Shown: positions 15,825 to 64,000 of the stretch, in pieces | Position numbering within the stretch: the first letter of the stretch is position 1 | How the letters are laid out: each line of letters starts with the position of its first letter | DNA from: Fundidesulfovibrio agrisoli | Lineage (GTDB): Bacteria; Desulfobacterota; Desulfovibrionia; Desulfovibrionales; Desulfovibrionaceae | Direction of reading: 5' to 3' | DNA length: 64,000 nucleotides | Assembly (NCBI RefSeq): GCF_022808715.1 | Contig: NZ_JAKZKX010000010.1 | Coordinates: 1-64,000 of the forward strand | Position numbers and translations under genes: made by a program | Notes under the pieces: model-generated | Database searches by the model: none | What the model saw: only the letters and a program-made list of their open reading frames with translations | Told to the model about the DNA's origin: nothing

Positions 15825-15827
15825 GGT

Positions 15828-49529: not shown

Positions 49530-49554
49530 ACGGCCGTCTCCATACCCGGACAGG

Positions 49555-49590
49555 GGTTCCAAGGGGCGCAGCCCTTTGGCCGCCGGAGGC
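49555..49590. repeat. REP-like palindromic element, copy B
   Basis: GGTTCCAAGGGGC...GCCCTTTGGCCGCCGGAGGC, the same unit as at 27854-27893, in the gap before the first amidotransferase. Confidence 0.75.
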
Positions 49591-49625
49591 TTCTTCCGGC
49601 AAGTATGAACGCCGGAGGAGAAGAT

Positions 49626-49665
49626 GCCTCCGGCGGGCAAAGGGAGTTCCTCCCTTTGCAATCCC
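49626..49665. repeat. REP-like palindromic element, copy C (inverted)
   Basis: Reverse-complement orientation of the same unit (GCCTCCGGCGGGCAAAGGGAG...CCCTTTGCAATCCC), 35 bases from copy B. The pair forms a BIME-like inverted doublet in the 172-base gap. Confidence 0.7.
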
Positions 49666-49701
49666 ATATCGCTTCGCGTTCAGGGCGGTGGAGGCGTCGC
49701 A

Positions 49702-50847
49702 TCAGCGATGCCCTCCGGCCAGACGGGCGCACAGTTCCAGATAACGCGAGGCGGCCGAAGCCCAGGAATAATGGCGCTCAACGCGCTCGCGGCCAGCCGC
49801 GCCCATGGTTTCGAGCAGGGGGATGTCTGTCAGCAGGGGAGCCAGGGCTGCGGCCAGGGCCGGGGCGTCCTCGGGGGGGACGAGCCGGCCGGTGAGGCCC
49901 GGCAGCACCAGCTCCTCGCTGCCCGCGATGGCGCTGGCCACCACCGGAAGGCCAGAGGCCATGGCCTCCAGCACGGCGTTGGGCATGCCCTCGTCCCGCG
50001 AAGGGAACACGAAGAGGTCCGCCCCGCGCAGGGCGCGCGCCAGCTCCGGGCGGCGCATCCAGCCGTGGAAGAAGATCTTGTCGCGGATGCCCAGGGAGGA
50101 TGCCTGCTGCTCCAACTCGGGGCGCATGGGGCCGTCGCCCGCCAGGTGCAGTTCGAAGGGTGCCGCGGCCATGTCGCCCAGGGCAGCGAGAAGGATGTCC
50201 AGCCCTTTCTGGTAGACCAGTCTGCCGTGGAAGAACAGTCGCACCGGGCCGGGCGCACGCTCGCCGCTGCGGGGGTGGAAGAGCGCCGTGTCCGCCCCGT
50301 TGGGGATCACCGGGTATTCCAGGCCGGGCTCGAAGCGCCGGGCCAGGGCGGCCAGACCGCCGCTGTTGGCAACAACCGCGCCAGCCTTGCGCCACAGGAG
50401 GCGGATCAACGGGCCGGTGAGCCTGTGCATGGCGGCCAGGTCGTAGGGCTGGAACCCTGGCACGTCGCCGCCGCGCAGCGAGACCACGTAGGGCGTGCCA
50501 CCAAACGCCTTGACCAGCCAGGCGGGCGGGCCGCAGGGGATGCCGAAGTAGGCCAGCACGGCATCTGGACGGAAGCGCCGGGCCATGAGCGGGGCGTGGA
50601 GGCAGGCGCTGGCCATGAAGGCGGCCATCTCCCAGGGGGCGCATTTCTCCTCGTGGCGGCGGATGGTGGGGATGCGGCGGATCTCGAAGCCGTCCGCGCG
50701 CTCGCGGGCCGGAAAGCCCCTGAATGCCGAGGTGAGCACCAGCACCTCTGCGCCCTGGCGGGCCATCTCGCGGGAGATGTTGGCCGTGGCGTTGCCCGCG
50801 CCCCCGCCCAGAGGGGGGTATTCGTAATTGATGGCCAGAATGCGCAT
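49702..50847 (-). CDS. GT4-family glycosyltransferase
   Basis: A 381-residue GT-B-fold glycosyltransferase with the glycine-rich N-terminal loop NYEYPPLGGGAG (about 7-18), donor-site motifs VIPNGADTALFHP and FPSRDEGMPNAVLEAMASGLP (the E-x7-E signature, about 275-295). These enzymes add hexoses to a lipid or growing glycan at the cytoplasmic face. The acceptor is unknown. Flanked on both sides by REP-like elements and separated by 303 bases from the methyltransferase gene, so it may be its own unit with the first amidotransferase. Confidence 0.9.
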   Translation of the reverse strand: MRILAINYEYPPLGGGAGNATANISREMARQGAEVLVLTSAFRGFPARERADGFEIRRIPTIRRHEEKCAPWEMAAFMASACLHAPLMARRFRPDAVLAYFGIPCGPPAWLVKAFGGTPYVVSLRGGDVPGFQPYDLAAMHRLTGPLIRLLWRKAGAVVANSGGLAALARRFEPGLEYPVIPNGADTALFHPRSGERAPGPVRLFFHGRLVYQKGLDILLAALGDMAAAPFELHLAGDGPMRPELEQQASSLGIRDKIFFHGWMRRPELARALRGADLFVFPSRDEGMPNAVLEAMASGLPVVASAIAGSEELVLPGLTGRLVPPEDAPALAAALAPLLTDIPLLETMGAAGRERVERHYSWASAASRYLELCARLAGGHR

Positions 50848-51150
50848 CGCGTCCGGAGTCCTCAGAAGCCCGTCAAAGCGTTGAATAAAATCAAATTAAT
50901 ACGGGATTCCAAAGGGCGAAGCCCTTTGGCCGCCGGAGGTCTTTCCTGGCCCATCATGGCGCCAGCCCTGGCCTCCCCGCGCCGAACCGTCGGCTGTATT
51001 TGAACAACATCCGCCAGTTCGGCGCGCAGAGGCCAAGGCCGGACCCGGCGCGGCTCATCCCGGCAGGGCGCCATGGCGGCAGTTGGACACCTGTCCAGGT
51101 CAAGCCGCGTTCGCGCCTGTGTCGCTGTCGCGTTCCTTTGGAACATCACC
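50848..51150. other. Gene-free gap with REP-like copy D
   Basis: About 300 bases between the GT4 and methyltransferase genes. It contains one REP-like element and an AT-rich stretch around 50880-50902. No gene is supported. Confidence 0.5.
50903..50939. repeat. REP-like palindromic element, copy D
   Basis: GGGATTCCAAAGGGC / GCCCTTTGGCCGCCGGAGG, nearly identical to copy A, downstream of the methyltransferase gene (minus strand). Confidence 0.75.
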
Positions 51151-51954
51151 TCAGACCACGGCCTCGCAGAAGATCGACGCCACGGTGGTGGCCAGCATGT
51201 CCGGGTCGCGCCCTGCGAACTCCCTGTCCAGGAAGGGCTCCACGGCCCTGAAGGCGCGTTTGTCCGTCTCGCGCCGCAGCACCTTGGCGGCGAACCCGGC
51301 GTCCCCAAGCGCCTGAAGATGGTCGTCCAGGCGGTTGCGGGGCAGGTCCCCGGGGTCCAGGAGGTTCTCCCAGATAGCGCGCGGGAACGTGAGGAACTGG
51401 AAGGGATATTTGAAGAAGTGGTCGCGGTAGTCCACCTTGTGCAGCATGAATCCGCCCGGGGCCAGCACGCGCCTGCACTGGCGCATCAGGCCCAGGGGAT
51501 CGCGCACGTGCTCCAGCACGGAGTTGGAGACGATCACGTCCGCGCTGGCCTCAGGCAGCAGGCTGAAGTCGCGCAGGCGGCGCACGTTCTGCGGCCCGGC
51601 CTGGGGGAAATGCACGCGCACACGCTCCAGCAGGGCCGCGTCGCGCCCTGGGTCGAACAGGGCGTAGGGCTCCACCCCGGTCCAGGAGCCGCCGAAGAGG
51701 GCGGTCCAGGCGTAGCCGGTGGCGTTGGTGGCCCCGCAGCCCAGCTCCACGGCGCGCAGGCCCTCCAGGGGCTTCCAGGCCTCGGCGGCCAGCTCGGCGT
51801 AGCCTTTGACCACGGCCTCGGGGTCGCCCAGGGCGGCATTGACCCGCCAATAGGGCAGGATGCCGCCCAGCTTGTCCAGCGCGGCCCCGGAGAGCAGGAA
51901 GCGCCGGATGAGCCGCAGCGGGACGTACTCCATGTTGGACCAGATCATGCTCAT
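51151..51954 (-). CDS. SAM-dependent methyltransferase
   Basis: A 267-residue class I methyltransferase with SAM motif AVELGCGATNATG (about 66-78), acidic VEP (about 92) and the later SNSVLEHVRDP (about 140-150). Methylates a small molecule, sugar or glycan in this context. Its ATG overlaps the stop of the second amidotransferase (ATGA), so they are coupled. Confidence 0.88.
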   Translation of the reverse strand: MSMIWSNMEYVPLRLIRRFLLSGAALDKLGGILPYWRVNAALGDPEAVVKGYAELAAEAWKPLEGLRAVELGCGATNATGYAWTALFGGSWTGVEPYALFDPGRDAALLERVRVHFPQAGPQNVRRLRDFSLLPEASADVIVSNSVLEHVRDPLGLMRQCRRVLAPGGFMLHKVDYRDHFFKYPFQFLTFPRAIWENLLDPGDLPRNRLDDHLQALGDAGFAAKVLRRETDKRAFRAVEPFLDREFAGRDPDMLATTVASIFCEAVV

Positions 51955-53828
51955 GCCGCGCCTCCTGCGGGTTGCGGATTGCGCCCCCGGTGCCTGCCCA
52001 GCACCCAGAGGTTCCAGAGCATGAGCCTGTGGTCGGCTTGGCCCCGGCGGTGCTCCTCCAGGCGGGCGGCGGCCCAGGCCCGGTTGACGCCGTTAGGCAG
52101 GGCAGCGAGGTCCGGGGCGAGCCTGCCCTGGTGGAACCACAGGCCCACGGGCGCGCCGAAGCCCTTCTTCTTGCGGTCCAGGATGTCGGCCGGGACCAGG
52201 GGCTCCAGGGCCTTGCGCAGGATGTACTTGCCACGCCCGCCCCGGAACTTGAAGCGGTGCGGGATGCGCCGCACAAGCTCCACCAGGTCCGCGTCCAGGT
52301 AGGGGGCGCGCACCTCCAGGGAGCAGAGCATGCTGGCGCGGTCCACCTTGGTCAGGATGGCGTCCTGCAGGTAGAAGCGGGCGTAGAACTCCAGGGTCTT
52401 GTCCACCAGGTCCTTGGGGCCGGTCTCCTCCCAGGCGGCGATGGCCTCGGAGTAGACCTCCTCCGGGTCGCACGGCCCGGCCAGCAGCTCGGGCAGGTCG
52501 CGCGGCTCCACGGGGCCGAGCCACACCGGGTTCCACAGCGGCTTGGGGTAGCCCAGGGCGCTCAGAAAGCGGTTGACCTTGAAGGAGACGTGCATGTTGG
52601 AGTGCCCCACGGGCAGCCGCGCGGCCAGCATGCGCAGGGCCATGTGCACGGGCTTGGGGCAGAGCGCCGAGTATGCTTCGGCGGCGGCCAGGGCCTTGAA
52701 GGGGTCGTAGCCCGCGAACAGCTCGTCCGCGCCGTCGCCGCCCAGGGCCACGGTGACGTGGGGGCGCGTCTCGCGGCAGAGCAGGTAGGTGGGCAAAAGC
52801 GAGCTGTCGCCCATGGGCTCGTCCAGGCGGGCGGCCAGGTCCGGCAGCAGGTCCAGGGCGCGGTCCAGCCCCAGGGTGTCCTGGTTGTGCAGGGTGCCGT
52901 AGAGTTTGGCCGCGCGCAGGCTGTGGGCGGACTCGTCGAAGCTGGCCTCCTCGAAGCCGATGGAGAAGGTGCGCAGGCCCTCCACGCGCCGGGCGGCCAG
53001 GGCCGTCACCGAGGAGGAGTCCACCCCGCCGGAGAGGAACACGCCCAGGGGCACGTCGCTCATCAGGCGGCGGGCCACGGCCTTGTCCAAGAGCTCCCTG
53101 AGTTGCTCGGCCCACTGGGCCTCGGGGTCGCGGGGCAGGGCCTCCATGGGCTCCACGCGGTAGGCCCAGTAGCGCGACACGCGCCCGGAGAAATCGGAGA
53201 GGTCGATGGCGAGGTTGTGCCCGCCGGGCAGCTTGACAACACCCTCGTAGAGGCTGTTGGGGGCCGGGATGAAGCCGTGGGCGAAATACTTGCGCAGGGC
53301 GAGGGCGCTCACGGTGGCGGGTACGCCGGGGTGGGCGAGCAGGGCCGTGAGTTCGGAGGCGAAGGCGAACAGGCCCGGGCGCAGGTGGTAGTAGAGGGGC
53401 TTCTTGCCGAAACGGTCGCGGGAGAGGAAGAGCCTGTCGGCCCCGGCGTCGTGGATGCAGAAGGCCCACATGCCGCTGAGGCGCTCGGGCATGGCCTCGC
53501 CCCACTCGCGGTAGCCGTGCAGCAGCACCTCGGTGTCGCAGTGGTGGGTCTGGAAGCGGTGGCCCTTGGCTTCGAGCTCGGCGCGCAGCTCGGCGTGGTT
53601 GTAGATCTCGCCGTTGAAGGTGACGGTGAGCCCGCCGTCAACGGTGCTCATGGGCTGCGCGCCCGATGCCACGTCGATGATGGCCAGCCTGCGGTGCCCG
53701 AAGCCCACGTTGCGCCGGGCGTGCAGCCAGAAGCCCGCGCCGTCCGGGCCCCGGTGGGCCTGGCGGGCGTTCATGGCCTCCAGCGCGGCCCTGTCGCCCT
53801 GGCCCGCGAAGCCGCAGATGCCGCACAT
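51951..53828 (-). CDS. Asparagine-synthase-type amidotransferase (AsnB family) 2
   Basis: A 625-residue homologue of the first amidotransferase with Cys2 (MCGICG), FNGEIYNHAELR, PPi loop LSGGVDSSSV and ALGGDGADELFAGYD. Like exopolysaccharide-linked AsnB proteins it likely transfers glutamine nitrogen onto a sugar or lipid acid, rather than aspartate. Five bases separate it from the GT2 gene upstream. Having two paralogues in one 6-kb stretch suggests two amidated positions or substrates. Confidence 0.9.
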   Translation of the reverse strand: MCGICGFAGQGDRAALEAMNARQAHRGPDGAGFWLHARRNVGFGHRRLAIIDVASGAQPMSTVDGGLTVTFNGEIYNHAELRAELEAKGHRFQTHHCDTEVLLHGYREWGEAMPERLSGMWAFCIHDAGADRLFLSRDRFGKKPLYYHLRPGLFAFASELTALLAHPGVPATVSALALRKYFAHGFIPAPNSLYEGVVKLPGGHNLAIDLSDFSGRVSRYWAYRVEPMEALPRDPEAQWAEQLRELLDKAVARRLMSDVPLGVFLSGGVDSSSVTALAARRVEGLRTFSIGFEEASFDESAHSLRAAKLYGTLHNQDTLGLDRALDLLPDLAARLDEPMGDSSLLPTYLLCRETRPHVTVALGGDGADELFAGYDPFKALAAAEAYSALCPKPVHMALRMLAARLPVGHSNMHVSFKVNRFLSALGYPKPLWNPVWLGPVEPRDLPELLAGPCDPEEVYSEAIAAWEETGPKDLVDKTLEFYARFYLQDAILTKVDRASMLCSLEVRAPYLDADLVELVRRIPHRFKFRGGRGKYILRKALEPLVPADILDRKKKGFGAPVGLWFHQGRLAPDLAALPNGVNRAWAAARLEEHRRGQADHRLMLWNLWVLGRHRGRNPQPAGGAA

Positions 53829-53833
53829 GGGCG

Positions 53834-54796
53834 TCAGTCCTTGCAGGAGCAGTTGCGCGTCTTGTCCACGATGTAGGTCGGCTTGTTTTGCGACTCGTGG
53901 TAGGTGCGCATGAGTATCTCCGCGATGAGGCCCATGAAGATGGACATGAAGCCCATGAGGAAGAACAACGTGACCACCAGGGGCAGGGGGGTGGCGATGA
54001 AGCTCTTGTCCGCGAAGATCTTAAGATAGAGCATGAGCAGGAACATCAGGAAGGCGATGAACACCGAGACCAGCCCGAACCCGCCGAAGAGGTGCATGGG
54101 CTTCTGGGCGAAGGTGTCCAGGAACTTGACCACGATCAGGTCCAGGATGACCTTGATGGTGCGGTCGATGCCGTATTTCGAGACCCCGTGCACGCGCGGG
54201 TGGTGGGTGACGCCCACCTCCGTGACCTTGGCCCCCTGCCAGGTGGCGTAGATGGGGATGAAGCGGTGCATCTCGCCGTAGAGTTTCACGTCCTTGATGA
54301 TCTGCTTGCGGTAGGCCTTGAGCGAGCAGCCGTAGTCGTGCAGGTGCACGCCGGAAATCTTTGAGATGACGAAGTTGGCCACCTTGCTGGGCAGGTTGCG
54401 CTTCAGAGGGTGGTCCTGCCGGTCCTTGCGCCAGCCGGAGACCACGTCGTAGCCCTCGGCCAGCTTGGCCAGCAGGCGGGGGATGTCCGCCGGGTCGTTC
54501 TGGAGGTCGCCGTCCATGGGGATGAGGATGTCGCCCTCGGCGGCGTCGATGCCCGCCATCATGGCCGGGGTCTGCCCGAAGTTGCGGCGCAGGTGGATCA
54601 CCTTGACCCGCGGGTCGCGCTGGGCCAGCTCCCGCAGGCGGTCGGCGGTGCCGTCCCTGGAGCCGTCGTCCACCATGATGATCTCGTAGGGGGTGTCCAT
54701 CGCGCCGAGCACTTCCTGCAGGCGGGTGTGCAGGGGGGCGATGTTGTCCTCTTCGTTGTACAGGGGAATGATGATCGAGAGAGAGTTTTCGCGCAT
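53834..54796 (-). CDS. GT2 glycosyltransferase with two C-terminal helices (dolichol-phosphate mannosyltransferase-like)
   Basis: A 320-residue GT-A enzyme: SIIIPLYNEEDNI (about 7-19), DDGSRDGT (about 44-51), DxD motif MDGDLQNDP (about 94-102) and two C-terminal membrane helices (about 230-255 and 264-290). This plan matches undecaprenyl-phosphate or dolichol-phosphate sugar transferases such as ArnC and DPM. They load a sugar on a lipid carrier for use outside the membrane by GT-C enzymes; the next gene upstream is a polytopic GT-C-like candidate. Ends NCSCKD. ATG at 54796 is the likely start. Confidence 0.88.
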   Translation of the reverse strand: MRENSLSIIIPLYNEEDNIAPLHTRLQEVLGAMDTPYEIIMVDDGSRDGTADRLRELAQRDPRVKVIHLRRNFGQTPAMMAGIDAAEGDILIPMDGDLQNDPADIPRLLAKLAEGYDVVSGWRKDRQDHPLKRNLPSKVANFVISKISGVHLHDYGCSLKAYRKQIIKDVKLYGEMHRFIPIYATWQGAKVTEVGVTHHPRVHGVSKYGIDRTIKVILDLIVVKFLDTFAQKPMHLFGGFGLVSVFIAFLMFLLMLYLKIFADKSFIATPLPLVVTLFFLMGFMSIFMGLIAEILMRTYHESQNKPTYIVDKTRNCSCKD

Positions 54797-54854
54797 AGTT
54801 GGGTAGCCGATTACACCCAAGCGGCCCGCGCATCAAGGGCGGCGGGGGAACAGG

Positions 54855-56537
54855 TCAGGAGGCGGGGCGCAGGGCGCGCACGTCCACCAGGAAGCGGCCC
54901 CCGCCCGCCGGGATGCGGGGGAAGGCGGACTCGTCCAGCAGGGCGAAGCGCGTGCGGCCTCGGGTCATGTCCTTGATGGCCGCGCCGAAGGGCTGGAAAT
55001 AGGGGCTGGCGGCCAGGAAGTGGGCGCTGAAGTGTTCCGGGTCCACCAGGATGTAGTCCACCTTCCAGGCCTTGGCGAAGGCGGCCACGTCGGCCGGGTC
55101 CTGGGAGTAGTAGGCGGTGAAGAAGCCCTCCAGGCGGGGCAGCAGTTGGTCCCACAGGCCGCGGCTCCAGACGTGGGAGAGCTCGAAGGTGGCCAGGGCG
55201 TTGCGCCGGGAGAAGGTCATGACCACGTCCATGAGCTCGGGGTGCCCGGCGATCATGGCGCTCTTGGGCGTGGAGGCCTCCACGGCGGCGCAGGTCTCGG
55301 CCAGGTCGGAGTAGTCGTAGAGGGCCACGTTGTGCAGCCTGGCCCCGCCCGCAAGCGCCGCCAGCAGGATCAGGGCCGCCGTGGCCTTGCGCCCATGCGG
55401 CCGCACCCAGCGGCTCCAGGCTCCCGCCAGGCAGATGCCCAGCAGCAGGGCGTAGAGCAGGTTGAGCGGATACTGCACGTAGCGGTCCGGCAGGAAGAGC
55501 GTGAAGGCCACCATGCGCGCGGCCACGTAGAACAGCAGGAAGGCGGCCCCCACGCACCACAGCGGGCGCAGCCGCTTCAGGAGCAGCCTGTGGTTGACGG
55601 CGCGCAGCCCGAACCAGAGCGCGGGCGCCAGCAGCACCAGGGTGACGATGCCCGCGGCCAGCCCGAACTCCTTGAACAGGCCCACGCCCTCGAAGGGGTA
55701 GTAGACGAAATCCAGGAAGGGGTTGGGCAGGGGGGCGATTTCCAGGCGGCCCTTGGGGCCGAACTCGGGCCTGCCGATGGTCTCGGCCAGGCTGACCAGG
55801 GGGCCGAATCCCAGCTCCTGCACGTGGGCGTTGGCCCACCAGGCCGCCGCGACCCCGGCGAGGGCCGCCAGCCACCCCGACACCCACAAACGGGTGGGCT
55901 TGAGCCTCCCCTTGAAGAGCTTCTCCCCGTCGCACAGGCCCCCGGCCAGGAAGCAGGGCAGCCCGATGTAAGGGATGAAAAGACCCTGGAGCAGCACCGC
56001 GAACATGGCCCAGCCGCCTGAAAGCAGCAGCAGCACGTAAAGCGCCAGCAGCGGGCTGGCGAAGGCCCGGGCCAGGCCGCCGGAGATGTTGTCGATGAAG
56101 AAGGGCATCAGCCAGACCATGCCCATGCAGGCCCAGGACACGGCCCGCCCGCCCAGGCGCAGGCCGATGCCGCGCACCAGCAGGCACTGGGCAACGAACA
56201 GAATGCCCGTGAGAATCTTGGAGAAGGCGATGGGGCCGACGAGCGGCGCGACGAGCCTGTAGAGCGCCTTGACCCCGGGGCTCACGTAGGCCTGGGCGTA
56301 GTCGTTCAGCAGGGAGGGCGGATAGAGCTGCGGGTCGAGCCAGCGCTGCATCCAGTAGAGCTGCTGGCGCACGTCGTCGTTGATGGCGAACGGGTTGAAG
56401 AGCCGCTCGCCGTGGGCCAGCAGGAACACCAGCGCGCTCAGGCCCAGGGCCCAGAGCGCGTCGGTCGCGGGCGGCGGCGGCTCCGCCTGACCCGTGAGCA
56501 GGCTGATGTGCGCGCAGCGCGGCTCGTGCGTGGTCAT
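54855..56537 (-). CDS. Polytopic membrane protein, GT-C-like
   Basis: A 560-residue protein with about ten hydrophobic helices between 25 and 410 and a soluble C-terminal domain (about 410-560). An acidic NDDVRQQ (about 53) lies in the first extracytoplasmic loop, where GT-C glycosyltransferases carry a catalytic Asp. It would use the lipid-linked sugar made by the GT2 gene to glycosylate a lipid or protein on the periplasmic side. The family is not securely identified. It starts seven bases after the GNAT gene stop. Confidence 0.7.
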   Translation of the reverse strand: MTTHEPRCAHISLLTGQAEPPPPATDALWALGLSALVFLLAHGERLFNPFAINDDVRQQLYWMQRWLDPQLYPPSLLNDYAQAYVSPGVKALYRLVAPLVGPIAFSKILTGILFVAQCLLVRGIGLRLGGRAVSWACMGMVWLMPFFIDNISGGLARAFASPLLALYVLLLLSGGWAMFAVLLQGLFIPYIGLPCFLAGGLCDGEKLFKGRLKPTRLWVSGWLAALAGVAAAWWANAHVQELGFGPLVSLAETIGRPEFGPKGRLEIAPLPNPFLDFVYYPFEGVGLFKEFGLAAGIVTLVLLAPALWFGLRAVNHRLLLKRLRPLWCVGAAFLLFYVAARMVAFTLFLPDRYVQYPLNLLYALLLGICLAGAWSRWVRPHGRKATAALILLAALAGGARLHNVALYDYSDLAETCAAVEASTPKSAMIAGHPELMDVVMTFSRRNALATFELSHVWSRGLWDQLLPRLEGFFTAYYSQDPADVAAFAKAWKVDYILVDPEHFSAHFLAASPYFQPFGAAIKDMTRGRTRFALLDESAFPRIPAGGGRFLVDVRALRPAS

Positions 56538-56544
56538 GGAGGGG

Positions 56545-57672
56545 CTAGATGTCGCGGTCGTAGAGGCGGAAGGTGCGCCAGATGCGCCCGCCGAACATGA
56601 CCAGCGTCTTGTTCCACTTCACCAGCGATTCCGGGATCAGGGAGCAGTCGCAGTAGCTGTAGCCTGTGCGCCATTTGCTCTGCACGATCATGGTGTGCAG
56701 GATCAGCGCGTGGTGCAGCTTGCGCCACTGGTGGGATTTCTTCACGCCCATGATGACGTCGCGGGTGGCCGTGAGCGGGAACACGCGGCAATCCAGCAAC
56801 AGGCGGATCATGCCCCACCAGTTCAGGTTGCTGCGGATCTTGTGCAGGGTCACGTTGATGTCGGGCACCACCACGTTGAAGGCCAGCAGCTCGTCGTTCT
56901 CGATGATGAAGTTGATGAGCTCCGGGCGGATGATGGGCTTCATCTGCAGGAAGATGTCGTCGAACTGGCGCTCGGTCAGGGGCACGTGGCCCCAGTTCTT
57001 CTGCCAGAGGGTGTTGAACATCTCCAGCACTTCGGGCCCGCGCTTGAGGAACTCGCTGGTTTTGCCCTCGGTGATGGTCACGTTGGCGGCGGTGAGGATC
57101 TCGTCGCGGCGGGCCGTGAGCTGCTCGATGGTGCCTGGAAGCTTGTCGATGTTGTAGGCGAACCAGTCGAAAGCCTTTTTGAAGCCCCAATTCTCGACCA
57201 GCTTCTCGTAGTAGGGCGGGTTGTAGACGTGGAACATCACCGGACGCTCGTGGTAGCCCTGCACCAGCAGGCCCACCTCGTCGTAGATGCCGAAGGAGAG
57301 GGGGCCGTGCAGCTTGCTCTTGCCGCGGGCCTTCACCCAGTCGGCCGCTGCCTGGAACAGGGCGTCGGCGGTGTCCTGGTCGTCGATGCACTCGAAGAAG
57401 CCGAAGAACCCGGTGCTGGCGTCGTGGTGCTTCTCGTAGGCGAAGTTCAGGTGCGCGCTGATGCGCCCGATGACGCGCTCGCCGTCCTTGGCCAGGAAGT
57501 ACTGGGCCTCGCCCACCTCGAAGAAGGGGCCGGTCTTGGGGTCAAGGAACTTGCGCTGGTGCGACAAAACGGGGGGGACCCAGTGCGGGTCCCCTTCGTA
57601 GATGGAAAACGGGAGCTGGAGGAAATCCTCCATGTCCTGCTTGGTGGTTACTGCGACGATGCGTGCGGACAT
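56545..57672 (-). CDS. GNAT-like N-acyltransferase
   Basis: A 375-residue cytoplasmic protein with GNAT-like features in its first 200 residues (LPFSIYEGDPHWVPP, opening; ERVIGRISAHLN; GFFGFFECIDDQDTADALFQAA), the plan of double-GNAT proteins often called hypothetical. In Caulobacter the bacterial ceramide synthase is, as I recall, a GNAT-like acyltransferase, so this gene in a serine palmitoyltransferase operon is a good candidate to acylate the sphingoid base. That is inference. Confidence 0.75.
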   Translation of the reverse strand: MSARIVAVTTKQDMEDFLQLPFSIYEGDPHWVPPVLSHQRKFLDPKTGPFFEVGEAQYFLAKDGERVIGRISAHLNFAYEKHHDASTGFFGFFECIDDQDTADALFQAAADWVKARGKSKLHGPLSFGIYDEVGLLVQGYHERPVMFHVYNPPYYEKLVENWGFKKAFDWFAYNIDKLPGTIEQLTARRDEILTAANVTITEGKTSEFLKRGPEVLEMFNTLWQKNWGHVPLTERQFDDIFLQMKPIIRPELINFIIENDELLAFNVVVPDINVTLHKIRSNLNWWGMIRLLLDCRVFPLTATRDVIMGVKKSHQWRKLHHALILHTMIVQSKWRTGYSYCDCSLIPESLVKWNKTLVMFGGRIWRTFRLYDRDI

Positions 57673-57681
57673 AATTCTGGA

Positions 57682-58641
57682 TTATTTTTTCGGTATGATG
57701 GTCACAAGGCCCTTGAGGCCTTCCTTGAGCGTGTAATCCGCGTTGGGCAGGGTCAGCTCGATCTCATAGTAGGACGGCTGCTGGAGCGAGCTGGGCAGCG
57801 GAGCCCAGGGGATGCGGCTCACGGTGGCGGTGAACTCCTTGCCGGGCAGGGAGTCGAAGGTCACCTTGGCCTGGTCGCCCAGCTTGAGGCGCAGGGCCTC
57901 AATCTCGTGCACCTGGGCCCGGATGAGGATGGGGTCCAGCGTGCCCACCTGGAACACCTCGGCGTCGCGGCTGAGCTTCACGCCCGCGCGCAGCTCGGGG
58001 TTGATCCAGAGGATGTAGCCGTCGATGGGGGCCTTGACGATGCCCTCGGGCGGAAGCTGGCCGTAGTTGGCCTTGGGGCCGAAGCGTTCGCGGGCCTGCT
58101 CCAGGCGCTGCTGGGCCATGTCGCGCTCGAGGTTGAGCTTTTCCTGCAAGGCCACGCGCTGCTTTTCGGCCACTTCGATGTCCTGGGCGTTCTGCGCCAG
58201 GGCCTGGGAGGTGGCCATGTTCTGCTTCTCCATGACCTCCAGTTCCTTGCGGCGCACGCGCAACCGGTCGATATCCTTGCCGGTGGTGGCGAGCTGGTGC
58301 TCCAGGTCCTTGACGGTGGCCAGGGACAGGGCGCGCTTCTCGGCCATGCGGGTGTCCAGCGGGGTGTCGAAGGTCAGCAGCACCTCGTCCTTCTTGACCT
58401 TCTGGCCGATGCTGGCGTTCATGGTCATTATCTTGGAGGTGTAGGGCAGGGTCACCGTGAGCTTGACCGGGCTGTAGAGCTTGCCGGAGAAGATGATCTC
58501 CTGCGCCGCCGGGGACGGATCGGGCTTGGCCATGGTCTGAGCGGGGGCCTGGGGCTGCCCCGCGTTCTGGGGGGCCTGGGCCAGGGCTTCGCCGCCCGCG
58601 AGCATAAGGGCCAGGGCGAGGGCGGTCAGTCGCTTGTTCAT
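57682..58641 (-). CDS. HlyD/MacA-like membrane fusion protein
   Basis: A 319-residue periplasmic adaptor with signal peptide (about 1-22), a lipoyl-type beta domain split around a long coiled-coil hairpin (about 100-190) and a beta-barrel region (about 210-315). It should bridge the ABC permease and the TolC-like protein. The start abuts the stop of the outer-membrane gene with no gap. Somewhat short for MacA. Confidence 0.87.
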   Translation of the reverse strand: MNKRLTALALALMLAGGEALAQAPQNAGQPQAPAQTMAKPDPSPAAQEIIFSGKLYSPVKLTVTLPYTSKIMTMNASIGQKVKKDEVLLTFDTPLDTRMAEKRALSLATVKDLEHQLATTGKDIDRLRVRRKELEVMEKQNMATSQALAQNAQDIEVAEKQRVALQEKLNLERDMAQQRLEQARERFGPKANYGQLPPEGIVKAPIDGYILWINPELRAGVKLSRDAEVFQVGTLDPILIRAQVHEIEALRLKLGDQAKVTFDSLPGKEFTATVSRIPWAPLPSSLQQPSYYEIELTLPNADYTLKEGLKGLVTIIPKK

Positions 58642-60237
58642 CTATTTCTCCCAGGAGGTCACGTCGACGTACTGCGACTGCAGGTCGCCGGAGAGGTGCT
58701 TGAGCGTCAGCAGGGCGATGTCGCGCTGGGTCTTGACCAGGATCATCTTCTGGTAGTCGTCGTAATAGGCGAGGCGGTCGGTCATGAAGCGGTCGAAGTC
58801 GATCTGCCCGGTCTTGTGGCGGTATTCGGTCTGCTCGTCCTGGAGTTTGGCCAGGTCGGACTTGGCCGTGGCCAGGGTCAGGTCGCTGTTGGCGCCCATA
58901 TACTCTGAGAGGGCCTTCTGCACGGTGACCATGAGCTCGAAATCCTTGGCGCGGGTGGTGGCCTGAACCTGATCGAGCTTCTTGTACTGGCGGGCAACGT
59001 CGCGGCCCTTGGTCCAATAGTCCAGGGGCATGGAGATGTTCAGGCCGGGGTAGAAGGGGATGCCTTTCTCCAGCTTGCGCTGTTCGCTGGAGAGGGCGTC
59101 CTGCGTCTGGAAGGTGAAGCCGAAGCTGGGCATCATCTTCACGTAGGAGAGCCCGATGTTTTTCTTCTGCAGGCGCTTCTCGTACTCGGCCATGCGCAGG
59201 TCGAAGCTGGCGGCGCGGACCTTGTCGTCCGTCACGTCGGCAGGGGCGAACTTGCCCAGGATCTGCTGCTTGGCGTTCTCGGGCTTGAGTTCGAGCTTCT
59301 GGCTGAAGGGCACGCCCAGGATGAACTTGATGTCGTCGAGCACCATCTGGCGGGAGGTGAAGAGCTTGTCCTCTTCGGCCTTGGTCATCTGGACGCGGGT
59401 CTCGGCGATGCGCAGATCGAGCTGCGTGGCCTGGCCCATGCTCTGCCTGGTCTTGAAGAAGTTCAGGTTCATGGTGGCCAAATCCTGCTTCTTGCGGATG
59501 ACTTCGCGCTGCTCGGCCATGGCCTGGAGCTGCAGGAAGTCCATGGCCAGGCGGCGGATGCCCTCGCCGATGACCTTGAGGTGGGACAGGATGGCCATGT
59601 TGGTCATCTCGTTGCGGGCGTGGACCTCGAATCCGGAGAGGACGGGGTTCCACTGGCCGGTGGAGAAGCCGATGGTGTAGGGCTTGGAGTTGGTGGAGCT
59701 GTCGGTCTGCGGCGGGAGCTTGAACCAGTAGGTCGTGTTGATGCTCACCGTGGGGATGAAGGTGGACCAGGCGTCCTGCACGTCCAGCCGCCGGGACTCG
59801 ATCTCCAGGGCGGATTTGACCAGCATGGGCGACTGCACCAGGGCCACGCGCACGCACTCGTTGAAGTCGGCAGGGCTCTTGATGCTGGTGGACCCGTGCA
59901 CGGCGTCGCCCGCGAGCACCGCCCCGGCCGGGATGGGGCCGGCGGTGGTGGCGGTGGCCTTGTCGGCGGGCATCTCCTTGGAGAGCGGGGCCTCCTTGGA
60001 GGCGGTCGCATCCTTGGAGGCGGACGTATCCTTGCCCGGCTGCGCCAGGGGCTGCGCGGGCCTGTCCGCCCCGGCGGGGGGCGAATCCGGCAGGGATTCG
60101 TACTGCTGGGGCTTGCCGGAGGAGGCCTTGGGCGCCGCCAGGGCCTGGCCCAGGGGCGCGAGCGCGAAGCACAGGCACAGGGCGAGAATGCGCCACATGG
60201 GGCGGGCCGCAGTGGAGGCAGTGGTGCGATGCGTCAT
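58642..60237 (-). CDS. TolC-like outer-membrane efflux protein
   Basis: A 531-residue TolC-family protein with a signal peptide (about 1-35), a Lys/Ala/Ser-rich linker (about 40-105, with KDATASKEAPLSKE-type repeats) and two long helical halves (about 120-525), each rich in coiled-coil heptads. It forms the outer-membrane exit duct. The long N-terminal linker is unusual for the family. ATG at 60237, ten bases after the ATPase gene. Confidence 0.87.
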   Translation of the reverse strand: MTHRTTASTAARPMWRILALCLCFALAPLGQALAAPKASSGKPQQYESLPDSPPAGADRPAQPLAQPGKDTSASKDATASKEAPLSKEMPADKATATTAGPIPAGAVLAGDAVHGSTSIKSPADFNECVRVALVQSPMLVKSALEIESRRLDVQDAWSTFIPTVSINTTYWFKLPPQTDSSTNSKPYTIGFSTGQWNPVLSGFEVHARNEMTNMAILSHLKVIGEGIRRLAMDFLQLQAMAEQREVIRKKQDLATMNLNFFKTRQSMGQATQLDLRIAETRVQMTKAEEDKLFTSRQMVLDDIKFILGVPFSQKLELKPENAKQQILGKFAPADVTDDKVRAASFDLRMAEYEKRLQKKNIGLSYVKMMPSFGFTFQTQDALSSEQRKLEKGIPFYPGLNISMPLDYWTKGRDVARQYKKLDQVQATTRAKDFELMVTVQKALSEYMGANSDLTLATAKSDLAKLQDEQTEYRHKTGQIDFDRFMTDRLAYYDDYQKMILVKTQRDIALLTLKHLSGDLQSQYVDVTSWEK

Positions 60238-60247
60238 GTGTTTCCCG

Positions 60248-60940
60248 TCAGTAGGGCTTGAGCACGCCGTCGGAGAGCAGGCATTTGCGCGTGCAGCGTT
60301 CAGCGGTGGCGGCATCGTGGGTGACGATGACCATGGCCACGCGCGCCTCTTCGGTGATCTTCACGAAATAATCCATCACGCGCTCGGAGTTGTCCTTGTC
60401 CAACTGGCCGGTGGGTTCGTCGGCCAGAATGAACTCGGGCTCGTTGACCAGGGCCCGCGCGATGGACACGCGCTGCCGCTCGCCGCCGGAGAGGCGGTTG
60501 GAGGGCTGGCGCACGCGGTGTTCCAGGTTGACCCTTTGCAGGGCCTCCATGATTTTGTGTTCCCTCTCGTGGCGTTTAACCCCGGTATAGATCAGGGGCA
60601 ACTCCAAATTCTCGTAGACCGTGGAATTTTCGAGCAAATCGCAGCTCTGGAACACGAAGCCCATCTTCTCGCGGCGAAAGACCGCCTGGGCGTCGCGGTT
60701 CAGGTTGAGCACGTCCACCCCGGCGATGGTGTAGCTGCCCGAGGTGGGCGGCTGGAAGATGCCCAGGATGAACAGCATGGTGGACTTGCCCGAACCCGAG
60801 GGGCCCATGATGGCGAGCATCTCGCCCCGGTTCACCTCGAGGTTGATGTCCTTGAGTACCTTGATCTGCTCCGAGCCCGACGCGTAGGTCTTGCTCAGGT
60901 GGCGGATGTCGATGACGCGGTCGGAATGTCCGTTATTCAT
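60248..60940 (-). CDS. MacB/LolD-like ABC transporter ATPase
   Basis: A 230-residue ATPase with Walker [10 protein letters not shown] (about 44-52), signature LSGGERQR (about 148-155), Walker [10 protein letters not shown] and the H-loop VTHD. This is the MacB/LolD subfamily of mechanotransmission ABC systems. The ATG at 60940 overlaps the end of the permease gene by eight bases. Confidence 0.93.
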
Positions 60941-62183
60941 AGCGCATGGCGTCCACAACCTGCATCCGGCTGGCCCGGATGGAGGGATACAGGCCCGAGC
61001 CCACGCCCAGGACAGCCGCGAAGATCAGGCCCGCCAGCAGGCAGATCGCGAACAGGCCCTCGGGCGGCTGCGTGCCCAGGGAGCGGCACATGTACTGCAC
61101 GCCCACCATGCCCAGGGCCACGCCCAGAAGGGCCGAGGAGAACGTGACGCACAGGGCCTCGAACAGGAACTGCCAGAGGATGTCGGAATCCTCGGCGCCC
61201 ATGGCCTTCTTCAGGCCGATCTCGCGGGTGCGCGCGGTGACCGCGGCCATCATGATGTTCCAGATGCCGAAGCCGCCCAGGACCAGCGTGGCCCCGATGG
61301 AGGCGTAGATGAACAGGCTGACCCACCAGAACACGCGCTGCACCTGCTTGAGCGGCTCCCAGCCCACCTGGATGCGCAGGCCCTTGCTGGGCTGGTAGGT
61401 GGTGATGGTCTTCTCCAGGGCGGCGGCCACGGGGGCCACGTCGTCCCAGGTGTTGCAGCGCACGTAGAGGCTCGAAAGCTCCGAGATGTTGGGCACGCGG
61501 GCCTGGGCCGTGGTGATGGGCAGGAAGGCCATGAGGGTCTTGTCGGCCGCGCGCACGCCGCCGATGATGCCCACCACGGTGTAAAGGTTGTTGTCCAGGT
61601 TGAGCATCTGGCCCACGGCGCCCTCGGGGGAGCCGAAGATCATCTTGGCCAGATCCTGCCCGAGCACGCAGACCTTGCGGCCCTCGCTTATGTCGGCGTC
61701 GTTGAACAGCCTGCCGTAGCGCGGCGTGAAGGAGAACAGCGACCAGTAGTTGGTGTCCACGCCCAGGAGGTTGAAGCCGTAGACCTTCTCCTGGAAGGTG
61801 GTGGTGGCCGCCGAGCGGAAGCGGCTCTTGGTGACTTCCTTGACCCCGGGGATCTTCTCGATGGCGTCGATGGTGCCTGTGCGGAACCACTCCTGCCGGT
61901 CGCCCATCTGGAGGTCGAAGTGGGCGGCGATGATGGTTGCGCCGCCCAGGAGGTCGAGGTCGTTGTTGAGGTTGGCCTTGAGGTCGCGGCCCATGGTCAC
62001 GATGGTGATGAGCCCGGCCGTGCCCAGGGCGATGGCCGCCATGACGCCGATATAGCGGCGGCGTTTGCGCACCACCTCGCGGAAGCTGATGCGCAGCAGG
62101 TCGCTGAAGCGCAGAAGGCGGGTGCCCCTGTCCTTGGGGAGGAAACCTTCTGCCCTCAGGCTTTGCAGTGTCTTGTTGGCCAT
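60933..62183 (-). CDS. MacB/FtsX-like ABC transporter permease
   Basis: A 416-residue permease with one N-terminal helix (about 45-65), a large periplasmic MacB-PCD domain (about 70-280) and three C-terminal helices (about 290-315, 340-365, 375-395), the FtsX/MacB topology. It works with the separate ATPase downstream; substrates of this class are taken from the outer leaflet or periplasm. It lies 60 bases after the serine palmitoyltransferase stop. Confidence 0.92.
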   Translation of the reverse strand: MANKTLQSLRAEGFLPKDRGTRLLRFSDLLRISFREVVRKRRRYIGVMAAIALGTAGLITIVTMGRDLKANLNNDLDLLGGATIIAAHFDLQMGDRQEWFRTGTIDAIEKIPGVKEVTKSRFRSAATTTFQEKVYGFNLLGVDTNYWSLFSFTPRYGRLFNDADISEGRKVCVLGQDLAKMIFGSPEGAVGQMLNLDNNLYTVVGIIGGVRAADKTLMAFLPITTAQARVPNISELSSLYVRCNTWDDVAPVAAALEKTITTYQPSKGLRIQVGWEPLKQVQRVFWWVSLFIYASIGATLVLGGFGIWNIMMAAVTARTREIGLKKAMGAEDSDILWQFLFEALCVTFSSALLGVALGMVGVQYMCRSLGTQPPEGLFAICLLAGLIFAAVLGVGSGLYPSIRASRMQVVDAMRYE

Positions 62184-62243
62184 GCTCTCTTGTGGGCGGG
62201 CTGGGCGCCCGTCCCTTATTGGACCCGTTTCACCGGGCTCCGG

Positions 62244-63533
62244 TTACAACAGGGACTGGCTGGAGCGCGCCCCGGCGATGTTGGACGCTCCGGCGGACTC
62301 GTCCTCGCCCTGGACCTCTTCGTCCTGGTCCTGCACGCGGATGCGGTATTTCTTGGCCATGTCGTCCATGACCTCCAGCACGTAGTCGAGCTGGCGGTCC
62401 TGGTGGGTGGACATGCACGCGGTGCGGATCAGGGCCTCGCCGCGGGGCACCGCCGGGTAGATGGCGGGCAGGGCGAAGATGCCGCGCTCGAACAGCTCGC
62501 GGGCGAACATGAAGGCCTTCTCGTCCGTGCCGATGGTGATCGGGATGATCGGGGAGATGGAGTCCGTGATGCGCAGGCCCATCTCGCGGTAGGCGTTGCG
62601 CATCTTGCTCGTCACGGCGCGCAGGCGCTCAACGCGCTCCGGCTCCTTCTCCATGATGTCGATGCAGGTCATGGCCGCCACGGTGGAGGCGGCGGGCAGC
62701 GCGGCGGAGAATATCTGCGTGCGGGACTGATGCTGGATGTACTCGAGCACGTCGTCGTGGTCCGAGGCGATGAAGCCGCCGATGGAGGCGAAAGCCTTGG
62801 AGAACGTGCCCATGATGAAGTCGGCGCGGTCGGTGATGCCGAAATGGTTGGCGGTGCCGCGCCCGTTCTCGCCCAGCACGCCCAGGCCGTGGGCGTCGTC
62901 CAGGTAGATCAGGATGTCGGGGAACTGGTCCTTCAGGGCGGCCAGCTCGTCCATGCAGGCCACGTCGCCGGACATGGAGAAGATGCCCTCGGTGATGAGC
63001 AGCACCTGGCCGTCGAAATCGGATTTGCCCAGCTCGTTGGCGATCTTCTTGGCGGCCGAGGCGGCGTCGTTGTGGGCGAAGGTGCCAAGCTTCCGGGTGC
63101 TGGTGGTGCCGGCGAAGATGGAGGCGTGGTTCTCGCGGTCGCAGAGCACGTAGTCGCCGGGGGTGAGCAGGCAGCCCAGGGCGCCCAGATTGGTGGAGAA
63201 GCCCGTGACGTGAAGCACGGCGCGCTTCTTGCCCACGAAGGCGGCCAGGCGCTCCTCCAACTGCTGGTGCAGCACCATGTTGCCGGAGAGGAAGCGCGAG
63301 CCGCCGGGGCCGGTGCCCATGCGGTAGAGGGCCTGGGCCGCGGCTTCCTTCACGCGGGCGTCATGGGACAGGCCGAGATAGTCGTTGGAGCCGATCATCA
63401 CCAGGCGTTTGCCGGCCACCTCCACCTCGGTGCCCCAGGAGCGTTCGATGGGGCGGAAGTAAGGGTAGATGCCCGCTTCCCTGAGGTGGCGGGTGATGCC
63501 GGAAACTTTCTGGCAGCGTTCATGCAATTTCAT
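62244..63533 (-). CDS. spt: Serine palmitoyltransferase-like alpha-oxoamine synthase
   Basis: A 429-residue PLP enzyme. The opening GIYPYFRPIE...GTEVEVAG, the GSNDYLGLS and GSRFLSGN motifs, the LDDAHGLGVLG segment and the Schiff-base lysine in MGTFSKAFASIGG (K246) follow the Bacteroides serine palmitoyltransferase pattern closely. It should condense serine with an acyl thioester to 3-ketosphinganine, the first step of sphingolipid synthesis. A 30-residue Gln/Glu/Ser-rich tail is extra. It heads a minus-strand run that includes an ABC exporter and a GNAT-like acyltransferase. A ketoacyl-type reductase and ACP are not in view. A different amino acid or acyl donor cannot be excluded. Confidence 0.85.
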   Translation of the reverse strand: MKLHERCQKVSGITRHLREAGIYPYFRPIERSWGTEVEVAGKRLVMIGSNDYLGLSHDARVKEAAAQALYRMGTGPGGSRFLSGNMVLHQQLEERLAAFVGKKRAVLHVTGFSTNLGALGCLLTPGDYVLCDRENHASIFAGTTSTRKLGTFAHNDAASAAKKIANELGKSDFDGQVLLITEGIFSMSGDVACMDELAALKDQFPDILIYLDDAHGLGVLGENGRGTANHFGITDRADFIMGTFSKAFASIGGFIASDHDDVLEYIQHQSRTQIFSAALPAASTVAAMTCIDIMEKEPERVERLRAVTSKMRNAYREMGLRITDSISPIIPITIGTDEKAFMFARELFERGIFALPAIYPAVPRGEALIRTACMSTHQDRQLDYVLEVMDDMAKKYRIRVQDQDEEVQGEDESAGASNIAGARSSQSLL

Positions 63534-63644: not shown

Positions 63645-64000
63645 TCAGGGGGTCGTACGCCCCATATATTCCCGGACGTGGCGGGCGTTTTCGCCCATGA
63701 TCTTGGACAGGGCGGTGGCCGCTCGCCCCAGTTGTTTCGGGAAGGCCGGGGTATAATAGGCCTCGTCGTCATCGTCGGCCAGCACCAGGGTGTAGCTGCG
63801 GGTCCACAGTTTGCGCTTGGCGGACCACTCCAGGTAGATCCAGGCCAGTCGCTCGCGCCCGTCGGCGGTGCGGCACAGGGCCGTGCCCCAGCAGTAGGCC
63901 TCGTCACCGGTCTCCACGGGGCGGTACTTGATGAAGGTGTCGCCCTGGAACGTAAGCCCGCTGGACTCGCAGAAACCCTTGGCGGCGCGCTCCCAGGCGG
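63645..64000 (-). CDS. Hypothetical protein, C-terminal part (cut by window edge)
   Basis: The last 118 residues of a protein whose start lies beyond the window. It contains a Trp/Tyr-rich region (YCWGTALCRT; WIYLEWSAKRKLW), an acidic LADDDDEAYYTP and a C-terminal helix KIMGENARHVREYMG. There is no membrane segment in the visible part. Family not recognised. It lies 111 bases upstream of the serine palmitoyltransferase start on the same strand. Confidence 0.75.
   Translation of the reverse strand, partial: AWERAAKGFCESSGLTFQGDTFIKYRPVETGDEAYCWGTALCRTADGRERLAWIYLEWSAKRKLWTRSYTLVLADDDDEAYYTPAFPKQLGRAATALSKIMGENARHVREYMGRTTP

What the first reader, a model, noticed from the sequence alone, without database searches (positions are those of the whole stretch)
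49702..63533. Serine palmitoyltransferase operon with MacAB/TolC-like export and glycan genes
From 63.5 to 51.1 kb, ten minus-strand genes are nearly gapless: Spt, permease, ATPase, TolC-like, HlyD-like, GNAT-like acyltransferase, GT-C-like protein, GT2, AsnB-like, methyltransferase. This is consistent with synthesis of a sphingoid lipid, its acylation, sugar decoration and export to the outer membrane by a tripartite pump. Sphingolipid export in Gram-negatives is poorly understood, so a dedicated pump would be of interest.
Basis: partly seen in the sequence, partly recalled or inferred. Interest (0 to 1): 0.75.

Follow-up and report, generated by a model that had tools for sequence, protein, structure and literature searches.

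The report
Ceramide-making operon with its own exporter
A sulfate-reducer-type bacterium carries one operon that seems to make ceramide lipids, add sugars to them and pump them out, and its relatives suggest that an unrelated enzyme has replaced the usual ceramide-finishing reductase.

Summary
In detail: ten tightly packed minus-strand genes (63,533 to 51,151), with GT4 and a second AsnB downstream. The "Spt" is closest to Sphingobacterium serine palmitoyltransferase and keeps its named active-site residues. The unannotated "GNAT" belongs to the bacterial ceramide synthase (bCerS) family by homology and position: it adjoins Spt in many phyla. In 39 of 39 examined loci with Spt at 54% identity or more, MacB permease and ATPase follow Spt directly; TolC and HlyD follow in nearly all. 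In a 370-genome phylum sample, all 29 genomes with this permease subfamily also have the ceramide synthase (105 of 370 overall), but three nearer relatives have the permease without it, and divergent members lie away from Spt. A dedicated exporter for a glycosylated ceramide is the best reading; cargo and product are untested. Beyond the window lies a second finding. No CerR-type ceramide reductase was found in this genome. Instead a zinc alcohol dehydrogenase-family gene 3.7 kb from spt occurs in 19 of 20 relatives with this Spt and in none of 129 other relatives searched; the exception carries CerR. I propose it as the missing ketoreductase. Known kind, new variant.

The parts
62244..63533 (-). 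spt: serine palmitoyltransferase-like alpha-oxoamine synthase, 429 aa
   Evidence: NF047600 416.8 bits, below its 640 cutoff; best PDB hits S. multivorum SPT 8guh and 3a2b, 335.7 bits, versus cysteate acyltransferase 28eh, 208.3 bits; active-site residues invariant in the 19 rows of A1 (window plus 18 relatives)
60933..62183 (-). MacB-type permease without fused ATPase (MacB_PCD + FtsX), 416 aa
   Evidence: Pfam PF12704 and PF02687; directly downstream of spt in the relatives
60248..60958 (-). MacB/LolD-type ABC ATPase, 236 aa
   Evidence: TIGR02211 LolD 227.4 bits, MacB 223.3 bits, both below cutoff
58642..60315 (-). TolC-like outer membrane efflux protein, 557 aa
   Evidence: Pfam OEP 78.3 bits
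57682..58641 (-). HlyD/MacA-like periplasmic adaptor, 319 aa
   Evidence: Pfam HlyD_D23 51.4 bits; RND_mfp 59.2 bits, below cutoff
56545..57672 (-). bacterial ceramide synthase-family (bCerS/CerS) tandem-GNAT acyltransferase, 375 aa
   Evidence: next to Spt in many phyla; present in 33 of 34 named Spt-bearing genomes; tandem GNAT fold
54855..56537 (-). GT-C-fold polytopic glycosyltransferase, 560 aa
   Evidence: AlphaFold model pLDDT 86.4; Foldseek hits OST, PglB and ArnT
53834..54820 (-). GT2, ArnC/PgfS-like polyprenyl-phosphate glycosyltransferase, 328 aa (start codon uncertain)
   Evidence: NF007986 221.1 bits, below its 529 cutoff
51951..53828 (-). AsnB-like glutamine amidotransferase, 625 aa
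   Evidence: TIGR01536 473.1 bits (above cutoff), TIGR03108 493.8 bits (below cutoff)
51151..51954 (-). SAM methyltransferase, 267 aa
   Evidence: Methyltransf_23 48.9 bits
49702..50847 (-). GT4 glycosyltransferase, 381 aa
   Evidence: Glyco_trans_1_4 134 bits; follows the operon in the closest relatives
47634..49667 (-). second AsnB-like amidotransferase, 677 aa (start codon uncertain)
   Evidence: Asn_synthase 327.3 bits; follows GT4 in several relatives

Best explanation
The operon makes a ceramide and prepares it for export. Spt condenses an amino acid, probably serine, with an acyl thioester to a 3-keto long-chain base. The GNAT-fold ceramide synthase N-acylates it. A zinc alcohol dehydrogenase-family (MDR) enzyme encoded just outside the window reduces the 3-keto group in place of CerR. 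GT2 charges a polyprenyl carrier and the GT-C enzyme transfers the sugar on the periplasmic face; GT4, AsnB and the methyltransferase elaborate the glycan. A split MacB-type ABC motor then uses mechanotransmission to lift the lipid from the periplasmic side into HlyD and TolC. Supported by comparison: enzyme families, gene order, co-occurrence. Inferred: amino acid, reductase role, glycan, flipping step, cargo and destination.
For: Spt is nearest to S. multivorum SPT; residues named in PMC10196870 passages (Tyr27, Asn52, Ser81, Phe83, His138, Ser185, Asp210, Ala212, His213, Thr241, Ser243, Lys244) are kept and invariant in 19 rows; Met271 is Ile here. GNAT follows Spt directly in Bacteroidota, KSB1, Calditrichia, Holophagaceae, Planctomycetota and a gammaproteobacterium with a CerR gene just upstream of Spt, and lies about 6 kb downstream of spt in Caulobacteraceae L137. 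Permease and ATPase follow Spt in 39 of 39 examined loci with Spt at 54% or more. Phylum sample: 29 of 29 permease genomes have the ceramide synthase, against 105 of 370 overall; 14 of 14 genera. ADH: 19 of 20 relatives with Spt at 57% or more, 0 of 129 others, although 56 kb or more from spt or on another contig in nine; the one without it, G025, has CerR beside CerS. In 34 named genomes ADH and CerR are largely exclusive: 14 ADH only, 16 CerR only, 2 both, 2 neither.
Against: No lipid data. G033, G081 and G085 have the permease subfamily without ceramide synthase. Spt homologues at about 50% in G064 and G085 come without ceramide synthase. In G282, G488 and G506 the 18 kb fetched round a divergent permease (34-36%) held no Spt, TolC or HlyD match, and in g26, g30 and g40 the permease is not beside an alpha-oxoamine synthase. 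L102 has Spt, GNAT and ADH but no pump within its 21 kb. In the fragmentary G019 an Spt piece is followed by ATPase and TolC without the permease between them. G454 and G512 have Spt and pump, no ADH at the cut used and no CerR within the 10 kb fetched around CerS; CerR elsewhere was not searched. Spt is below the NCBIfam equivalog cutoffs. ADH is at least as close to ketose, sorbitol and inositol-type dehydrogenases as to threonine dehydrogenase. None of the proteins scanned in or just upstream of the operon matched an acyl carrier protein. Sequence does not prove cargo.
Confidence: 0.65

Rival explanations
1. The pump exports something else (a glycan precursor, lipoprotein or small molecule) and is merely co-transcribed with ceramide synthesis genes.
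For: G033, G081 and G085 keep the permease without ceramide synthase; the operon is full of glycan genes; in genera g26, g30 and g40 the permease sits beside GT4b and GT2c, not beside an alpha-oxoamine synthase; G282 and G506 have it beside a Wzx-like gene with no Spt in the fetched stretch.
Against: Permease directly after Spt in 39 of 39 examined loci over several families; 29 of 29 phylum-sample permease genomes have the ceramide synthase; in L224, L226 and L229, which lack this Spt, TolC and HlyD lie within about 6 kb of another alpha-oxoamine synthase.
Confidence: 0.2
2. The enzymes make a related lipid rather than a classical serine-derived ceramide, for example a 1-deoxysphingolipid (alanine) or sulfonolipid (cysteate).
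For: SPT can use alanine and glycine at low efficiency (PMC10196870, start of abstract); Black Sea Desulfobacterota and/or Bacteroidota correlate with 1-deoxyceramides and their sulfono forms (PMC11334938, passage); Spt is below the NCBIfam cutoffs.
Against: Closest solved relatives are true SPTs, 335.7 bits against 208.3 for the cysteate acyltransferase; serine-contact residues are conserved; glycosylation needs a 1-hydroxyl if it occurs there.
Confidence: 0.12
3. The ADH belongs to glycan or sugar-alcohol biosynthesis and its match with Spt is a by-product of a shared gene cluster, so 3-keto reduction is done by an unrecognised SDR.
For: Best family hits are scyllo-inosose and sorbitol/ketose-type dehydrogenases; it neighbours rSAM1 and GT4b in several loci; SDRs other than CerR-like epimerases were not examined.
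Against: Present in 19 of 20 Spt relatives, in nine of them far from spt or on another contig; near-exclusive with CerR in two genome sets; G164 and G025 keep rSAM1 and glycan genes but have CerR and no ADH.
Confidence: 0.3

Closest known systems
Caulobacter crescentus ceramide/phosphosphingolipid cluster CC_1168-CC_1152 (PMC11324152)
   Same: Spt and a GNAT-type ceramide synthase with lipid-decoration and transport genes in one region; transport to the outer membrane proposed.
   Different: Caulobacter has CerR, AcpR and AasR, a ceramide kinase route to phosphosphingolipids, and Lpt-like LptC2/F2/G2 transport candidates; here a MacB-TolC-HlyD pump, glycan genes and, outside the window, ADH instead of CerR.
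DevBCA-HgdD heterocyst glycolipid exporter of Anabaena (PMC6161253)
   Same: Split MacB-type ABC permease and ATPase with an adaptor and TolC, exporting a glycolipid.
   Different: Not the same subfamily: the ATPase scores LolD 227 and MacB 223 against DevA 173 bits, the adaptor RND_mfp 59 against DevB 40 bits; partner genes make ceramide, not heterocyst glycolipid.
MacAB-TolC and LolCDE (type VII ABC, PMC5985334)
   Same: MacB_PCD/FtsX permease, mechanotransmission-type motor; TolC and adaptor encoded together as in tripartite pumps.
   Different: Permease and ATPase are separate genes and the operon holds lipid biosynthesis genes.
Pseudomonas SgaAB polyketide-type sphingolipid locus (PMC12134224)
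   Same: A related lineage with a similar pump family (L229) has an alpha-oxoamine synthase beside an AT+ACP protein.
   Different: The window's operon has a stand-alone Spt and none of its scanned proteins is PKS-like.
ArnC/ArnT lipid A sugar transfer (recalled)
   Same: An ArnC-like GT2 paired with a GT-C-fold transferase.
   Different: Acceptor is presumed to be ceramide or its glycan; no family-level sequence match to ArnT.

Membership tests
Serine palmitoyltransferase (AONS family) | PLP lysine, stacking His and serine-contact residues of S. multivorum SPT | tested here: met
   Lys246, His136, Asp212, His215, Ser79, Asn50 and Thr243 align with Lys244, His138, Asp210, His213, Ser81, Asn52 and Thr241 and are invariant in 19 rows
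Serine palmitoyltransferase (AONS family) | NCBIfam equivalog cutoff | tested here: not met
   NF047600 416.8 bits against a cutoff of 640, still the best of 12 families
Serine palmitoyltransferase (AONS family) | Uses L-serine and an acyl thioester | not testable with these tools
   Needs enzyme assay
Bacterial ceramide synthase (bCerS/CerS) | GNAT-type protein homologous to the one encoded with Spt and CerR in known producers | tested here: met
   Homologues between Spt and a CerR-type epimerase in L108, L114 and L120, and about 6 kb downstream of spt in Caulobacteraceae L137; CC_1154 itself was not compared directly
Bacterial ceramide synthase (bCerS/CerS) | N-acylates a long-chain base | not testable with these tools
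   Needs assay
Canonical bacterial sphingolipid pathway (Spt, bCerS, CerR) | CerR present | tested here: not met
   No hit at E<=1e-35 with A5 in G000 and 7 Spt relatives; top A4 hit in G000 105.6 bits and partial, 14 of 36 candidates scored; in the tree the CerR group holds rows of 201 bits or more
MacAB-TolC-type tripartite exporter | MacB permease, ABC ATPase, HlyD-type adaptor and TolC-type protein encoded together | tested here: met
MacAB-TolC-type tripartite exporter | Export of a substrate through an assembled complex | not testable with these tools
   Needs complex isolation and transport assay
DevBCA glycolipid exporters | DevA and DevB subfamily models | tested here: not met
   DevA 172.8 bits (cutoff 295.8), DevB 40 bits (cutoff 129)
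GT-C glycosyltransferases | GT-C fold | tested here: met
   Foldseek E 4.7e-07 to OST and 4.4e-05 to ArnT, TM about 0.5
Zinc MDR dehydrogenases (gene outside the window) | Conserved catalytic-zinc and structural-zinc ligand residues | tested here: met
   C68, H98, E99 and C127, C135, C138, C146 are the same in at least 31 of 33 rows; their assignment as zinc ligands is recalled

The most novel reading that the evidence does not exclude
A branch of Desulfobacterota-type bacteria runs a rewired sphingolipid system: CerR is replaced by a non-homologous zinc MDR ketoreductase acting in the cytoplasm, and the glycosylated ceramide leaves through its own MacB-type tripartite pump. A divergent version of the same pump serves sister lineages, at least one of which appears to build the long-chain base with a PKS-like/AONS pair.
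Probability: 0.45. Interest if true: 0.78.

Novelty: new variant of a known kind. Interest (0 to 1): 0.66.

Why it matters
How bacteria move sphingolipids to the cell surface is unsolved: the published Caulobacter proposal is Lpt-like and was not tested in that paper (PMC11324152, section 8). This locus offers a self-contained alternative that can be tested by deleting one gene. Published work says the three core enzymes are found in all sphingolipid-making bacteria and debates whether reduction comes before or after acylation, because CerR is periplasmic with no known electron donor (PMC11087976, section 8). A lineage with Spt and ceramide synthase but an MDR dehydrogenase in place of CerR would break that rule and bear on the order of steps. 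It would also let genome surveys that look for CerR recover missed producers.

Tried and rejected
CerR in this genome: several epimerase-like hits, all rejected. The best in G000 is partial and scores 105.6 bits; none passes E<=1e-35 with A5. Of the ADH-bearing genomes, epimerases of twelve were placed in the tree: ten (G011, G036, G152, G156, G157, G159, G161, G162, G163, G166) fall outside the CerR group, and two (G155, G160, with four and two GNAT copies) inside. Weaker hits of other ADH genomes, for example G002 and G019, were not placed.

Sulfonolipid reading of Spt: considered, lowered by PDB scores. DevBCA membership: rejected by scores. Rfam (gathering threshold) and tRNA scans of the window found nothing. 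Profile search of the GNAT alignment against PDB sequences gave no hit.

The gene after CerR in g40 genomes was suspected to be a lipid exporter; Pfam shows a fused two-ABC-domain protein with ABC_tran_Xtn, not evidently a transporter. Early on I called the G064/G085 Spt genes degenerate because of flagged stops (notes). I withdrew that because the G064 ORF is intact at 413 aa; the G085 ORF was not checked further.

A first ADH alignment was spoiled by stop-to-stop extensions and replaced. The ORF picker chose some wrong frames, e.g. in L042 and L049; gene positions were therefore taken from tblastn. One search ran before the loci had reached the Python box and its search was empty; one search repeated it.

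Limits: thresholds were chosen after seeing the score gaps (Spt 54% or 57% identity, permease E<=1e-80, ADH E<=1e-130 in the phylum sample, CerR 200 bits). In some searches only part of the first-look candidates of a genome was scored (up to 14, 4, 5 and 5), so absences there are soft. A5 contains CerR sequences of genomes whose relatives it then scores, which inflates scores; the tree does not use them. The p-values ignore shared ancestry.
Full report
The window is the first 64 kb of contig C2 (133,007 bases) of a 3.94 Mb genome. Named near relatives are Desulfovibrionaceae, including Solidesulfovibrio. Ten minus-strand ORFs from 63,533 to 51,151 are packed with gaps of at most 60 nt; GT4 and a second AsnB follow. 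Families.

Spt. Of 12 NCBIfam families the best is the Bacteroidota-type serine palmitoyltransferase (416.8 bits, below its cutoff). Among solved structures the S. multivorum SPT scores 335.7 bits, the cysteate acyltransferase 208.3. Active-site residues named in passages of PMC10196870 are kept, read off the alignment, and invariant in 19 rows (window plus 18 relatives); only Met271 differs (Ile). The genome's two other AONS hits are a glycine C-acetyltransferase and a BioF-like protein just under its cutoff.

GNAT. No Pfam or NCBIfam match. In the 80 named loci found with Spt, 34 hold a GNAT homologue at E<=1e-15. It lies directly beside Spt in Chitinophagaceae and other Bacteroidota, KSB1, Calditrichia, Holophagaceae, Planctomycetota, two actinomycete genomes and a gammaproteobacterium; in several of these a CerR-type epimerase is next to it or upstream of Spt. 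In Caulobacteraceae L137 it lies about 6 kb downstream of spt, which fits CC_1154 (cerS) relative to spt CC_1162 as described in PMC11324152, section 8, part 1. Of 34 named genomes, 33 have it; most named loci at Spt identity below 40% have none within their stretch and may not be true Spt. The AlphaFold model is a tandem GNAT. I file it as a ceramide synthase family member by homology and position; activity is untested.

Pump. Loci examined with Spt at 54% or more: L034-L051 (18), L085-L099 (15; L083 and L084 dropped as duplicates of L036 and L041), L101, L104, L434, L435, L439 and L440. In 39 of 39 the permease follows Spt within about 560 bp and the ATPase follows the permease. HlyD is found in 38 (L095 ends before it). 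TolC is called by tblastn in 37; L099 shows it only in the ORF comparison, and L095 ends before it. Dropped: L100 (Spt at a contig end) and the fragmentary G019 loci, one of which (L241) has an Spt piece followed by ATPase and TolC with no permease between, the permease and HlyD lying on another contig (L163). Without pump in the stretch: L052 (Spt 52%), L102 (49%), L103 (44%).

Co-occurrence. In 370 genomes drawn across the phylum, the permease (E<=1e-80) is in 29, the ceramide synthase (E<=1e-40) in 105, and all 29 have both; Spt was not searched in that set. In 149 relatives, 28 genomes have the permease at E<=1e-80; 24 have the ceramide synthase and four do not (G019, G033, G081, G085). 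G019 has Spt and a fragmented assembly; the other three are real exceptions as far as these searches show. In G282, G488 and G506 (family f61) the 18 kb round a divergent permease held no Spt, TolC or HlyD match, though these genomes have ceramide synthase elsewhere.

Sister lineages g26, g30 and g40 lack this Spt but have ceramide synthase with CerR beside it and a divergent permease beside GT4b and GT2c. In three loci (L224, L226, L229) TolC and HlyD lie within about 6 kb of another AONS. In L229 that AONS adjoins a 1170-aa AT+ACP protein, reminiscent of SgaAB (PMC12134224, passages).

The missing reductase. CerR homologues were not found here: no hit at E<=1e-35 in G000 and seven Spt relatives. 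A zinc MDR dehydrogenase (L033:7231-8472, contig C2:67231-68472, minus strand), 3.7 kb upstream of spt, is found in 19 of 20 relatives with Spt at 57% or more (own genome included) and in 0 of 129 others, two of which (G064, G085) have Spt homologues near 50%. It is 56 kb or more from spt or on another contig in nine of the 19. The twentieth, G025, lacks it and has CerR next to CerS. Eight further relatives have ceramide synthase but not this Spt; none has ADH and all eight have CerR, in each case with CerS sequence in the flank. In 34 named genomes: 14 ADH only, 16 CerR only, 2 both (G155 and G160, with 4 and 2 ceramide synthases), 2 neither: G175, without ceramide synthase, and G176, whose CerS-flanking epimerase scores only 157 bits and falls outside the CerR group. 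Two of the ADH calls (G151, G161) are fragments, and G149 is the same genome as relative G046. In the phylum sample ADH (E<=1e-130) is in 14 genomes, all with permease and ceramide synthase; 18 others have only 32-38% paralogues. Of the 15 permease genomes without ADH, G045 and G072 have CerR and eight more have CerR beside CerS. Five (G282, G454, G488, G506, G512) do not have it within the 10 kb fetched around CerS, and CerR elsewhere was not searched. The 33 ADH rows (two identical) form one side of a supported branch, apart from 16 paralogues; the tool warns that the place of the long row L287 is unsure. Threonine dehydrogenase is an MDR enzyme acting on a 2-amino-3-keto compound made by an Spt homologue, so the chemistry is plausible (recalled; it is among the family and PDB hits). 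By eye the protein has no signal peptide; localisation was not tested.

Mechanism. MacB-type transporters do not move substrate across the inner membrane but work on the periplasmic side (PMC5985334, passages), which fits a lipid already on that face. GT-C enzymes of the OST/ArnT fold also act there (recalled). A flippase for ceramide is not identified; a Wzx-like gene lies upstream (L033:13219-14667). DevBCA-HgdD is a precedent for a glycolipid going through such a machine (PMC6161253, passages).

Literature. In the listings of searches of the held open-access library (titles and abstract starts of the rows shown) I saw no paper describing a MacB-type pump for sphingolipids or an MDR reductase in a sphingolipid pathway; several of these searches matched more papers than were listed. 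Bacterial ketosphinganine reductase BT_0972 is an SDR (PMC9278070, passages). Desulfobacterota were already inferred to be sphingolipid producers, and replacement of bCerS and CerR by non-homologous proteins was suggested as a possibility for Cloacimonadota (PMC11334938, abstract and passages). Also seen: PMC11324152 (abstract, sections 8 part 1 and 9), PMC11087976 (abstract, section 8). The library lacks most subscription papers, including the one that, from memory, defined bCerS and CerR (its content is recalled).

Noticed in passing
L033:7231-8472 (contig C2:67231-68472, outside the window): Zinc MDR dehydrogenase whose presence tracks Spt and is nearly exclusive with CerR; proposed ketoreductase.
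   Followed up: yes
L229:9764-14897 and L226, L224: Another alpha-oxoamine synthase within about 6 kb of TolC, HlyD and Wzx genes in relatives that lack this Spt; in L229 it adjoins an AT+ACP (PKS-like) protein.
   Followed up: partly
L033:8582-9796 and 14726-16273: Two radical SAM proteins in the upstream glycan region; rSAM1 is found near Spt or ADH in loci of several families, role unknown.
   Followed up: partly
L033:11685-12857: GT2 with weak HpnI (64.5 bits) and Glyco_transf_21 (24.2 bits; ceramide glucosyltransferase family, recalled) matches; its homologue neighbours the divergent permease in g26, g30 and g40 genomes. Possible first sugar transferase.
   Followed up: partly
G155 (genome of L090): Four ceramide synthase copies plus both ADH and CerR in one genome, suggesting two parallel sphingolipid pathways.
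   Followed up: no
L440 (G370:C30:1-18646): The system nearly complete in one 19-kb stretch: GT2c, GT1-like, GT4b, rSAM1, ADH, GT2, Spt, pump and, cut by the contig end, ceramide synthase. A good locus for heterologous expression.
   Followed up: partly
window 45293-47629, plus strand: 778-aa ORF on the opposite strand next to the second AsnB; by eye it looks like an EAL-CBS-GGDEF signalling protein.
   Followed up: no
window 63645-64000, minus strand, continuing in L033 to about 6185: Two small proteins and a larger, by eye polytopic, protein directly upstream of spt with no Pfam or NCBIfam match; homologues in 12 of the compared loci.
   Followed up: partly
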